Below are positions 34,049 through 47,742 of a stretch of DNA of 64,000 nucleotides, piece by piece. Made by a program: the position numbers and the translations under genes. Under the pieces are notes generated by a model that worked only from the letters and a program-made list of their open reading frames with translations, was not told where the DNA came from and searched no databases. Origin of the DNA: Oehlia diaphana (taxonomy: Eukaryota; Glomeromycota; Glomeromycetes; Glomerales; Glomeraceae); assembly GCA_003833135.1 (NCBI GenBank), contig QZLH01000031.1, positions 168,353 through 232,352 on the forward strand, in the 5' to 3' direction. Numbering within the stretch: the stretch's first letter is position 1; each line of letters starts with the position of its first letter.

Positions 34049-34558
34049 ATGTCTCCACCATCAGGTCAAATCGAATCAAGACCACTTAGAGTTAATACTC
34101 CAGCGAAACGTGGACGAAAACCTTATACTACACCAGACGTTATCGATGTAACTGGAAGAACTCATTTTATGGTTGTTAGAAGATTACAAACAAATAAAAA
34201 ACCCAAGAAAAAGATAAATAACAATGAATGTAAAAATTGTGAGCAAAGTGATGAATATGTGGACATACTCGAAGAGAGAATAAATAAGTTAGAAGGCTTA
34301 ATTAATACTTTAAATGATAAAGTCACAAATGTAAAGGCTGTGCCAAATAATCCAATCATTAATTCTAGCGAATTAAATAGTTATTCAAATTTAGATATAA
34401 ATTCTCTTCTTCGTCTTTCTGATACTGTGGGGCAGGTCTTATATAATAATACTCAACAAGTTTCGCCTACAACTACAGTAGAAACAGAATTCAATATAAA
34501 CGAGAATATAATGACAGAACTTTGGAACCCGAGTATAGACGGACAAAATATGTTTTAA
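34049..34558 (+). CDS. Intronless AT-hook protein with CxxC and short coiled coil, 169 aa (paralogue 1)
   Basis: Family not recognised. A basic KRGRKP motif (20-25) resembles an AT-hook for minor-groove binding. It is followed by DVTGRTHFMVVRR (33-45), a lysine-rich nuclear-localisation-like stretch (KKPKKK, 50-55), CKNCEQSDEY (61-70) and a short leucine/isoleucine heptad region (ILEERINKLEGLINTL) that could dimerise. The C-terminal 80 residues are Asn/Ser/Thr-rich with little predicted structure. All blocks recur in the same order in the gene at 47155, so the frame is real. Likely a nuclear DNA-binding or chromatin protein (inference). No introns, unlike the large genes in this window. It sits in a desert: the nearest well-supported gene upstream ends at 27931. 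Confidence 0.82.
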   Translation: MSPPSGQIESRPLRVNTPAKRGRKPYTTPDVIDVTGRTHFMVVRRLQTNKKPKKKINNNECKNCEQSDEYVDILEERINKLEGLINTLNDKVTNVKAVPNNPIINSSELNSYSNLDINSLLRLSDTVGQVLYNNTQQVSPTTTVETEFNINENIMTELWNPSIDGQNMF

Positions 34559-37256
34559 TTATCATTTTTTTTACATTTTTTTTTGTTTTTTTTTTTTTTT
34601 TTTTTTTTTTACAAGAAAAAAAAAAAGCAACAATATTTTCATTATTTAGTTTTATATGATTTCTTTTCCATTTAAGTATATATAACTATGCGGGCGAAAT
34701 ATTTTAAATTCCTAAAGAAGAAAAGAAACTATTCAATAATAGCATTTATTTTGTGCTTTTATTGTAATAGAAAGATTCAATTATTGTAAATATTATATTT
34801 AAATTTTAAATTTAGTTATAAATGCTAATATCTAAACTGAACAGTAAATTTATTACATCTTCTGTCAGTTTTTTCAAACAATTTATTTCTTCCATATTAT
34901 CCATTTACGTTCACCCTCTCCTTATTCATTTTATATAGATCAAACAACCAATATATTTTTTCATACGTTTATTATTATTATTATAAGAGCATTAAGATTT
35001 TATTATTATGAATAAGAACTATTTTGATTGTTCATATTCAAATTTTGGAAGGAATAATCTTTTATTTTATTTTTATTTTTTTATTATTTTCATTATTTTT
35101 TAATAATTTTTTTTTTTTTTTTTTCTATAATATTCTCATTTGTACAGTAATTTGCGATTTCATTAATAATAAAATAATTTTATTTTAGAAATTTTTAAGA
35201 ATATCTTATTCGAGAAATTTGTTTACAAGTAATGTCCTTTAATTTACAAATCGAAAACGCGTAAAAAGAGATGCAACTAGATAATAAAATCATTAGAAAT
35301 ACGTAATTATCTATCAATGAATGATTGAATTAATCAATTAATGCAATTTATTAATTTATTTTACACGCAGTTAAAATCCTTTGTCTGATTTTTGTACAAC
35401 CCAAATTATGAAACCTATTTGTTTCTTTTTCGAATTTTCGGTCAAGTCTTGTGATTATGTAATTCTGTACATTTTTTATAAAGAAAATTCTTGTGGAAGA
35501 AATTCTTTATGAATTTTGTTAATTCAAATACTAAATTCATGACATAAATTTGCTTAACGTAATATAATTTGTTTATCAGATACGAATTTTATGTACAAAA
35601 TAGGTAATAATAATAATAACATGGAAAACATGTTCAAGGATCGGAGAAAAAAATAAAATAAAATAAAAATTTCTTGCATGATCATATTTAATTTTTTTTC
35701 GGGTTTGTGACTCCATAACAACGGAATCATTAACTAAATAATTTTAATTTGTTCTATTACATATGATACTTTTATTTATTGTTAGTTTTACGATTGAGTT
35801 GTACAAAAAAACATCATGAAACTATTGTAATGTAATTATCCGTTAATTTTATGTTTCAAATCATTAAAATGTTACACGAGTATGATAAACGTGTATCATT
35901 TTTGAAACTCCTCCAAGTTTTTTTTTTTTAAAAAAAAAAATTAACGATCCAATCAAATAATCAGGATTTTCATTACATACTAATAAAAAAATTTTATTTT
36001 ATTTATTTTTTTTCTTTTTATTTTCTATGGAAAGATTACATGGAAACTTTTTAACAATATTTTAATATTTTACAATTATTAATATTATTAAAATGATAAA
36101 TACAAACTGGTTAAAATCAAAAAAAAAAAAAATTCAGTTAAAACAATTTATTTCTTATAGTTGTTTTATCACGCGTTAGAAATTTAAATTTTAAAAACGC
36201 GTTTCAAAGCAAATTAGTTTGGAATTTGTGTATCATTTTACGAATTTTTTTTTTATATAAACAACAAACAAATAAAATTACGTCATTAGCCACACTATCA
36301 CACGATGACGTAGTTATTGCTTAATTTCACCCACAATTAGAAATTTTAAATGATGATACAACAGGTTTATTATTACCTTGCATACAGCTTTTTTTTTTCA
36401 GAGTTTACTTTTTTACAAGAAAGTAAGTTTTATGCTTTATGACGAAATAATTTTTCAAAGTGGTACACCAATCGAAAAATTGACCCGGTCTTTCATGAAT
36501 CATGACAGGAAAACGATTTCCACGTAGAAATACTTTTTATTTTTAACTTGCATGAAAATAATATTTATGATGAGCAAATGTTTGGATTTTTTAACATAGC
36601 ATACATCAAAAATGCACATAAAAATAATCAATTATGAAAAAAACTAAAATCATACAATTGTGTTATATTAAAAAGATTTTTCTTAACGGATAACGTAACA
36701 AGTATATAGTTCGTTCAAGATTAGAATTATTCTGTAAGAGTTTTCTAAGTTTTCTAACAACGTACTATTCATTTTTCTTTTTCATAAAGAATATAAAGAA
36801 TTTTTTATGGGAACAAATCTTTTTTAACATATTAAAAAAATTTTATACTTGATAAGCGTAGTGACGTATTTTGCATCGGGATTTATATAATGAAACAGGA
36901 ATTTTCGTGTTAATAATAATAATATTTGCGATACAATGCGATTTTCCATTTCTGGTTAGAAATCACGCTTTTTCCTTACTTTTCGACTTTTTGTAAACGA
37001 AATATTTTGATACATTTAATTAAGATACGGATTATTAGGATTATTTAATATCATTTTATTTTTCATTGTTATTTTGAATTATTCATCAAGAAAACTTTGA
37101 ATTTTAAATAAAGTTGTTTTGCTGCAAGGATCATTAAACGTAAAATTCATTGAATTTCTTAATTTAGAAATTCCCGAGTTTCATCATAATAATAATAATA
37201 TCATTGGTTTGGAAATTTCGAATTAATAAGCAATTTGAATTCTATAATAAAGTAAT
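34559..37256. other. AT-rich gene desert downstream of AT-hook gene 1
   Basis: Long poly-T run at 34586-34610 and a T10/A11 palindrome near 35919-35940. No coding sequence was supported. Confidence 0.4.
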
Positions 37257-37590
37257 ATGTAAATATATGAAATATATGAAATATATGTGAAAATATACGT
37301 ATATGAAATATATGAAATATATGAAAATATTAAAATATGAAATATACGAAACTCTATAAAAATTTTCTGGGGAAAATTCCGACAAATGATCATTTTTTCT
37401 AGTTTTCATTCCAAAAAACTCCGATGTGATCAATTTTCTAAAAAATTAATTTTTATATGAAATATAAATGAAAATATTTGAGGAATATGAAATATATAGA
37501 ATATGATATATGAAATACTGTATATGAAAGTATGAAATATAGTATGACTGAAATATGAAATACAGTATAGTATTACAGTAATATAGTATT
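37257..37590. repeat. ATATGAAAT-type satellite-like tract
   Basis: Many imperfect copies of ATATGAAAT/ATATGAAAAT from 37257 to 37590. A MITE of the CGCTCTATAAAA family (37352-37457) sits inside the tract and splits it. Confidence 0.7.
37352..37457 (-). mobile_element. MITE-like repeat, CGCTCTATAAAA family, copy 2
   Basis: Starts CTCTATAAAAATTTTCTGGG. In reverse complement it matches the core of the 10725-10837 copy (TGATCA.ATCGGAGTTTTTTGGAATGAAAACTA and the second TGATCA sub-repeat). Opposite orientation to copy 1. Confidence 0.7.
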
Positions 37591-47049: not shown

Positions 47050-47058
47050 TATATAAAG
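47050..47058 (+). promoter_or_regulatory. TATA-like box upstream of AT-hook gene 2
   Basis: TATATAAAG about 100 nt before the ATG at 47155, with a pyrimidine-rich stretch following (TCACTCCAACATCTTCC). Confidence 0.45.
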
Positions 47059-47154
47059 TCTGAAAGTTTGCTTCCTAGTCACTCCAACATCTTCCTTCAA
47101 AATATTTCATTTTTTTTATAAAAAAAAAAATAAAATAAACGAAATTTAATAAAA

Positions 47155-47742
47155 ATGAGTCCACCAAATTCTTTTGATGAAAAGCCCGTTGTAAAATCAA
47201 AACGAGGACGAAAAGCTCTTGCTGTTAGCGAAGGACATATTGATGTTACAGGTAGAACACACATAATGACTGTTCGCAGAACGAATCCTCCTACTCCAAA
47301 AAAGAAAACTACAACCCCAAAAGCAATAAAACAAAACAACAATACTTATTGTAGACGATGTGAACAAAATGACGAATATATCGATGTTCTTAACGACCGA
47401 ATCGGCAAATTAGAAAACTTGGTAGAAAAATTAACAAACACAACGAAAAACAATTGTATTAACAATAATATTACACAACAACAACCTCAACCGATAATCG
47501 CTCCAAATTTCTCTGCTATGGGAACGGAAGATCTTTTAAATTTGTCAAGTCAAATTAACGTTGTACTGCTCGAAAGATTTGACATTCAAAATCAATTACA
47601 ATTACAAACTTCGATGATAAACCCAATAACTCCAATAACTCCAATAACTCCAATAAATTTAACCCCACCTGTAAGCCCGTTTACAACTTGCGAAGCCACT
47701 GAAATAACGGAGTGGAGTTATCCGCCATTTAACCAATATTAA
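47155..47742 (+). CDS. Intronless AT-hook protein with CxxC and short coiled coil, 195 aa (paralogue 2)
   Basis: Paralogue of the 34049-34558 gene. It starts MSPP as that one does; KRGRK (16-20) is the AT-hook-like motif, followed by DVTGRTHIMTVRR (30-42), a basic TPKKKTTTPKAIK stretch, CRRCEQNDEYIDVL (66-79) and DRIGKLENLVEKL. The spacing between AT-hook, DVTGRTH and CxxCEQxDEY is nearly the same in both. The C-terminal half diverges: Gln/Asn/Pro-rich with four ITP repeats (about 157-168), ending in an aromatic EWSYPPFNQY. Such a tail could be a transcription-activating or interaction region (inference). No introns; GC is clearly above the flanks, which supports coding. Confidence 0.85.
   Translation: MSPPNSFDEKPVVKSKRGRKALAVSEGHIDVTGRTHIMTVRRTNPPTPKKKTTTPKAIKQNNNTYCRRCEQNDEYIDVLNDRIGKLENLVEKLTNTTKNNCINNNITQQQPQPIIAPNFSAMGTEDLLNLSSQINVVLLERFDIQNQLQLQTSMINPITPITPITPINLTPPVSPFTTCEATEITEWSYPPFNQY
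47622..47659 (+). repeat. In-frame 9-bp tandem repeat
   Basis: Four copies of CCAATAACT (last imperfect) encode (ITP)n in paralogue 2; absent from paralogue 1. Confidence 0.8.

What the first reader, a model, noticed from the sequence alone, without database searches (positions are those of the whole stretch)
34049..47742. Two paralogous intronless AT-hook/CxxCEQxDEY proteins in a gene desert
The genes at 34049-34558 and 47155-47742 share, in order and spacing, MSPP, KRGRK, DVTGRTHxM, VRR, a Lys-rich stretch, CxxCEQxDEY and a short coiled coil, while their C-terminal halves have diverged. I do not recognise the DVTGRTH-CxxCEQxDEY combination as any named family. Both are intronless among intron-rich genes and have about 13 kb of mostly gene-free DNA between them. 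This looks like a lineage-specific DNA-binding family.
Basis: partly seen in the sequence, partly recalled or inferred. Interest (0 to 1): 0.75.

Follow-up and report, generated by a model that had tools for sequence, protein, structure and literature searches.

The report
Fungal symbiont family of coiled-coil proteins
Two neighbouring genes of a mycorrhizal fungus belong to a protein family that matched no known family here and turned up only in such root symbionts; its members look built to pair up and perhaps to bind DNA.

Summary
Two uninterrupted ORFs (34049-34558, 169 aa; 47155-47742, 195 aa) are paralogues (55 of 147 aligned columns identical). Both types have orthologues in Rhizophagus, Glomus and Funneliformis; only the second turned up in Gigaspora and Dentiscutata. 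No Pfam or PDB family fits.

The pair is part of a larger family. The same genome holds a third relative, three two-exon relatives and a clustered set of small genes (20 of 51 matches open over at least 95 of 118 residues). Seven groups link by profile comparison above column shuffles; a bZIP control does not. They share two modules: a CxxC-capped three-heptad coiled coil with a conserved g-e' Lys/Arg-Glu pair, and a second helix. KRGRK plus DxTGxxHxMxVRR was seen only in the window pair and their orthologues.

Best reading: small dimeric, probably nuclear regulators, with a basic N-terminus for DNA, a coiled-coil clamp and an acidic, Trp-bearing tail. DNA binding, zinc, localisation and expression are inferred or untested. 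'AT-hook' in the strict sense is not supported. No gene was recognised in the 12.6 kb between them.

The parts
34049..34558 (+). Gene 1, 169 aa, one uninterrupted ORF, start to stop
   Evidence: orthologues P0034 (Rhizophagus irregularis), P0036 (Glomus cerebriforme), P0041 (Funneliformis mosseae), P0042 (F. geosporum)
34106..34120 (+). KRGRK basic motif (aa 20-24)
   Evidence: K20, R21, G22, K24 invariant and R23 at least 90% in the 28-row alignment A1
34145..34183 (+). DVTGRTHFMVVRR motif (aa 33-45)
   Evidence: D33, T35, G36, H39, M41 invariant in A1
34229..34339 (+). CxxC cap and coiled coil (aa 61-97)
   Evidence: helix 68-97 in AF2 model; heptads and g-e' pair
34385..34456 (+). second helix module (aa 113-136)
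   Evidence: helix 117-136 in AF2 model; shared in the wider family
34490..34555 (+). acidic, aromatic C-terminal tail (EFNINENIMTELWNP...)
   Evidence: net charge -7 over aa 101-169; ELW or EFW in most gene-1 type rows
47155..47742 (+). Gene 2, 195 aa, one uninterrupted ORF, start to stop
   Evidence: orthologues P0003 (G. cerebriforme), P0006 and P0007 (Funneliformis), P0019 (Gigaspora rosea)
47200..47214 (+). KRGRK basic motif (aa 16-20)
47242..47280 (+). DVTGRTHIMTVRR motif (aa 30-42)
47350..47463 (+). CxxC cap and coiled coil (aa 66-103)
   Evidence: helix 67-103, mean pLDDT of ten-residue blocks 81-94 over residues 71-100
47503..47610 (+). second helix module (aa 117-152)
   Evidence: helix 124-152
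47668..47739 (+). C-terminal tail with Trp (PVSPFTTCEATEITEWSYPPF)
   Evidence: net charge -6 over aa 101-195; DW or EW in most but not all gene-2 type rows
34559..47154 (.). intergenic stretch, low GC, no gene recognised, some dispersed repeats
   Evidence: (5 of 6 ORFs scanned)

Best explanation
Both genes encode small proteins of a family found here in Glomeromycotina that most likely act in the nucleus as dimeric DNA- or chromatin-binding regulators. Shown: in the window pair and their orthologues a basic N-terminal segment, a CxxC directly before a three-heptad coiled coil, and a second short helix are conserved across genera; in the array subfamily the coil and second helix are under purifying selection. 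Strongly suggested by sequence: the coil is a parallel two-strand dimer (mostly I/V at a, L/I/F at d, conserved K/R-E g-e' pair). Inferred: the two CxxC pairs of a dimer sit together and could bind one zinc or form disulphides; the basic segment (KRGRK plus DxTGxTHxMxVRR) touches DNA; the acidic, Trp-bearing tail recruits transcription machinery. Because the relatives share one coil register, heterodimers are possible.
For: Orthologues across genera. Links in the wider family: all 21 pairs of seven groups (two of them single sequences) give hhalign scores of 33.0-162.5; column shuffles (60 for each of 7 pairs) reach at most 22.1, and a profile of eight own-genome bZIPs scores 9.3-21.6. Heptad: a/d hydrophobic in 372 of 378 cells, K/R at g in 63 of 63 and E at e in 62 of 63 chosen sequences (its pattern asked for CxxC, for hydrophobic residues and for E or G at e, and no chosen sequence failed it). 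On all 70 proteins returned, 60 have the core and 58 of those keep the pair. CxxC kept in 17 of 17 intact array genes; median dN/dS 0.23 overall, 0.09 in the second module. AF2 puts helices at both modules. Charge runs from +10 (aa 1-60) to -7 and -6 at the C-terminal end.
Against: No known DNA-binding domain is recognised. Outside the two modules the AF2 models are of low confidence (mean pLDDT 57 and 58), and Foldseek found no PDB match. The N-terminal segment is clearly shared only between gene-1 and gene-2 types; gene-1 type against the third relative is marginal (16.6, best of 20 shuffles 13.5). In the two-exon relatives the 40 residues before CxxC are not basic (means -1.0, -0.9, 0.0). 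In the arrays the second module is more constrained than the basic region (0.09 against 0.39). Zinc, dimerisation, localisation and expression are untested.
Confidence: 0.48

Rival explanations
1. The same CxxC-coiled-coil dimer, but an adaptor or scaffold (chromatin, mRNP or cytoplasmic) rather than a sequence-specific regulator; the basic N-terminus is for localisation or general nucleic-acid binding, and the second helix is the real docking site.
For: The most constrained part of the array subfamily is the second module (median dN/dS 0.09), not the N-terminal part (0.39); the basic region is not clearly shared between groups.
Against: KRGRK and DxTGxxHxMxVRR hold nine of the ten invariant columns among rows of the window-pair types, which fits a specific contact; acidic Trp-bearing tails resemble activation segments (recalled).
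Confidence: 0.27
2. A degenerate descendant of a known fungal DNA-binding class that kept only the dimerisation coil: bZIP (GRKP-type Yap/Pap1) or Zn2Cys6.
For: RGRKP, a basic stretch, then Y[IV]xxLxxR-hydrophobic-xxLE recalls both classes (from memory); the PDB profile search lists CREB1 at E 0.31 over the coil.
Against: Profiles score no better against own-genome bZIPs (9.3-21.6) than against shuffles (maxima 18.5-22.1); no Pfam hit to either class nor in the 25 of 49 families shown; two Cys in the module, not six; no bZIP basic signature. No Zn2Cys6 profile was compared directly.
Confidence: 0.08
3. Redox or metal sensor: the CxxC pair switches between disulphide and zinc-bound states and the rest transmits it.
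For: CxxC next to the coil in 60 of 70 proteins returned and 17 of 17 intact array genes.
Against: A structural cap explains the same conservation; no other redox feature was seen.
Confidence: 0.1
4. Genes of no cellular role (transposon-derived or chance ORFs).
For: The array subfamily has many broken copies and clusters.
Against: Window-pair orthologues conserved across genera; arrays under purifying selection; in the 91 flank matches printed, homology between array loci stops near the ORF ends, apart from one separate repeat shared by L022, L023 and L025.
Confidence: 0.03

Closest known systems
Fungal bZIP factors of the Yap/Pap1 type (from memory)
   Same: Basic N-terminal stretch that can include RGRKP, then a short parallel coiled coil; would work as a dimer on DNA.
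   Different: No bZIP basic signature, no continuous basic helix, coil of about three heptads capped by CxxC; no profile similarity above shuffles to eight own-genome bZIPs.
Zn2Cys6 (Gal4-type) factors (from memory)
   Same: Metal-type cysteines just before a short dimerising coiled coil; acidic tail.
   Different: Two cysteines in the module instead of six; no Pfam match or among the families shown.
AT-hook proteins (from memory)
   Same: A short K/R-G-R basic motif.
   Different: GRK, not GRP, in both window proteins; a two-exon relative on C570 does carry RRTGRPIRNK.
Rad50 zinc hook (from memory)
   Same: CxxC at the end of a coil, so two chains could share one zinc.
   Different: Small separate protein, parallel coil inferred; zinc not tested here.

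Membership tests
bZIP | Pfam bZIP model match | tested here: not met
   searches list none at E up to 10; one search shows 25 of 49 families, none bZIP; 14 own-genome loci do match PF00170
bZIP | profile similarity to own-genome bZIPs beyond chance | tested here: not met
   hhalign scores 9.3-21.6 for the seven groups; shuffle maxima 18.5-22.1
bZIP | coiled coil with parallel-dimer heptads after a basic segment | tested here: met
   63 of 63 chosen sequences for the heptads; the basic segment holds for the window pair, third relative and arrays, not for the two-exon relatives; a working resemblance, not membership
Zn2Cys6 | six cysteines in the CxxC...C...CxxC...C pattern (recalled) | tested here: not met
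   only C61, C64 (gene 1) or C66, C69 (gene 2) in the module; sequences
AT-hook | GRP core (recalled) and a Pfam AT_hook match | tested here: not met
   GRK in both proteins; no AT_hook listed, or in the 25 of 49 families shown
Rad50-type zinc hook (as a mode of working) | one zinc bound by two CxxC pairs | not testable with these tools
   needs metal analysis
The wider family described here (CxxC coiled coil plus second helix) | CxxC with coil in register, plus downstream helix, in colinear order | tested here: met
   this family has no outside definition

The most novel reading that the evidence does not exclude
A new class of DNA-binding regulators confined to arbuscular mycorrhizal fungi, with a dimer clamp made of a metal- or disulphide-capped CxxC coiled coil, and a network of homo- and heterodimers in which 17-20 clustered, fast-turning-over array members tune a few old core members.
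Probability: 0.25. Interest if true: 0.75.

Novelty: new variant of a known kind. Interest (0 to 1): 0.5.

Why it matters
Arbuscular mycorrhizal fungi are obligate symbionts that are hard to manipulate genetically, and little is known of regulators of their own (general knowledge). A family seen here only in them, with an old conserved core and a clustered set of copies many of which are broken, gives a short list of testable candidates. It also shows that small intronless genes in AT-rich stretches can be misread by annotation: in one R. irregularis model (P0004) the coil is missing, apparently spliced out.

Tried and rejected
Rejected: AT-hook in the strict sense; bZIP origin (no profile signal) and Zn2Cys6 origin (no Pfam hit seen, two Cys; no direct profile comparison made); TE origin of the array genes (homology stops near ORF ends in the 91 matches printed, whose list was cut there).

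Led nowhere: Foldseek of the second model against PDB (0 matches at E up to 10); PDB sequence and profile searches (best E 0.38 and 0.077); literature: searches gave no paper, searches gave 3, 3 and 2, one search listed 20 of 51 and one search listed 10 of 35. I saw titles and the starts of abstracts; none is about this family. In PMC10234402 I saw found passages only (no 'AT-hook', no 'coiled'). N-terminus-only profile comparison: clear for gene-1 against gene-2 type (56.1, best of 20 shuffles 14.2), marginal for gene-1 type against the third relative (16.6 against 13.5), otherwise within the shuffles; the C42 relative was cut at the wrong cysteine, so its four comparisons are uninformative. 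DNA flanks of the two genes: 19 weak matches at E up to 1, best 42 bp, E 1.6e-4, outside both ORFs. Expression could not be tested.

Rows dropped: the heptad count used 63 chosen sequences; the count over all 70 proteins returned is, where 10 lack the full core (P0004, P0012 with Tyr for the first Cys, P0023-P0027, P0031, P0068, P0070: partial models or changed copies). dN/dS used 17 array genes chosen as intact, of 34 ORFs matched (which include the window pair and other relatives); of their 136 pairs, saturated ones fell out (121 left overall, 72-116 by region), and the region borders were set by eye. The array query gave 51 matches at E up to 10, the query itself, the window pair and other relatives included, some genes in two pieces; 37 at E up to 0.001; 20 open over at least 95 of 118 residues, of which some lack a clear start or the second module (counted by eye).
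Full report
Observation. The two ORFs are real and at the stated places: 169 aa at 34049-34558 and 195 aa at 47155-47742. They align with 55 of 147 columns identical, E 1e-20. In 100 shuffles of the surrounding 27.8 kb no ORF was as long (maximum 146 aa).

Homologues. A search of some 5.8 billion proteins gave 33 hits at E up to 1 for the second protein and 15 for the first; 19 and 4 of these show a species: Rhizophagus irregularis, Glomus cerebriforme, Funneliformis, Gigaspora and Dentiscutata (the last two for the second protein only). 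A third search, with the eight-member alignment A2, gave 41 hits at E up to 10, 18 with a species: the same genera without Gigaspora and Dentiscutata, Diversispora, and P0053, labelled Anthurium amnicola. P0053 falls inside the third-relative clade, so I read it as fungal sequence in a plant sample; this is inference. Only proteins that share exact words can be found, so absence elsewhere is not proof. In G. cerebriforme the two types have near-consecutive tags (C1645_759777, C1645_759781), each on a contig listed as 296,825 bp, so they are probably linked there too.

No known family. Pfam scans of both proteins, of the 28 rows of A1 (25 of 49 families shown) and of the 8 rows of A2 gave only weak, scattered hits. 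PDB sequence searches found nothing convincing.

A larger family. In the window's own genome (108.8 Mb, 1,672 contigs) the first protein finds the second and a third relative on contig C269 (E 1.8e-6). The third finds a broken-looking copy on C352 and, weakly (E 0.04), a gene on C8. That C8 gene gives 51 matches at E up to 10, 37 at E up to 0.001, 20 of them open over at least 95 of 118 residues; several contigs hold more than one, above all C8 (173-281 kb), C688, C918, C1040, C83 and C1604. Two genes on C570 and one on C42 carry both modules with a phase-0 intron between them (read by eye; the annotated R. irregularis protein P0045 agrees with the splice of the second C570 gene). The first C570 gene and the C42 gene find the arrays at E 5.2e-7 and 5.6e-7; C42 finds the first window gene at E 0.011.

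Profile test. All 21 pairs of the seven groups score 33.0-162.5 in hhalign (two groups, C570 and C42, are single sequences); shuffled columns reach at most 22.1 (60 shuffles for each of 7 pairs), and a profile of eight own-genome bZIPs scores 9.3-21.6. Within two halves (window pair with the third relative; arrays with the two-exon genes) probabilities are 95.6-99.7%; across the halves they run from 54.6 to 95.2%, mostly over the 32-38 columns of CxxC and coil. The tree (61 rows) shows the same two halves (100/99). It places the Gigaspora protein with gene-2 types (99/97), which suggests that the pair arose before Glomerales and Diversisporales split. The tool warns that this row, and the branch between the halves, are long.

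Anatomy. Counted from the first Cys, positions 10, 13, 17, 20, 24 and 27 are hydrophobic in 372 of 378 cells; the six other registers give 0.04-0.70. K/R at position 16 and E at position 21 form a g-e' pair in 62 of 63 chosen sequences, and in 58 of the 60 proteins with the core among all 70 returned. This is what a parallel two-stranded coil would show (general knowledge). AF2 gives helices at the coil and at the second module, with low confidence elsewhere. In the arrays both Cys are kept in 17 of 17; median dN/dS is 0.23 overall, 0.39 for the N-terminal part, 0.26 for the coil, 0.58 for the linker, 0.09 for the second module and 0.74 for the tail. Many dS values exceed 1, so these are rough.

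Against my reading. The basic segment is clearly shared only between gene-1 and gene-2 types and the 40 residues before CxxC are not basic in the two-exon relatives. The strongest constraint in the arrays is on the second module, which fits a docking role as well as a regulator. Of the 70 proteins returned, 10 lack the full core. Expression, localisation, DNA binding and metal binding are untested.

Setting. Between the genes lie 12,596 bp of GC 0.239 with dispersed repeats; 5 of the 6 ORFs of at least 80 codons there were scanned, without a convincing Pfam match. Of ten further ORFs scanned in the window, five match Pfam: an ABC transporter, a BACK-TLDc protein, a MIF-like protein, and MIR and C-terminal pieces of a protein O-mannosyltransferase, the last ending near 27.9 kb.

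Noticed in passing
G000 contigs C8 (173-281 kb), C688, C918, C1040, C83, C1604 (loci L022-L036 and others): Clustered small intronless genes of the array subfamily, with many broken copies; 17 intact ones show purifying selection.
   Followed up: partly
window 23482-23832 and about 11672-11965: A MIF-like gene (Pfam MIF) and a second ORF that looks similar by eye about 12 kb away (not tested).
   Followed up: no
window about 8.7-9.2 kb and 22.1-22.8 kb: Runs of N (translated as X).
   Followed up: no
L011 (C352) and protein P0070: Broken-looking copy of the third relative; a similar shortened model (RhiirA1_452238) is annotated as a protein in R. irregularis.
   Followed up: partly
protein P0053: Protein filed under the plant Anthurium amnicola, with a shikimate-enzyme name, that falls inside the fungal third-relative clade; probably contamination.
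   Followed up: partly
protein P0004: R. irregularis gene model of the second type in which the coiled coil is missing, apparently by a wrong splice.
   Followed up: no
window 41272-41455, 41833-42558, 42812-43054: Dispersed repeats with copies on many other contigs (39 of 1050 candidates scored).
   Followed up: partly
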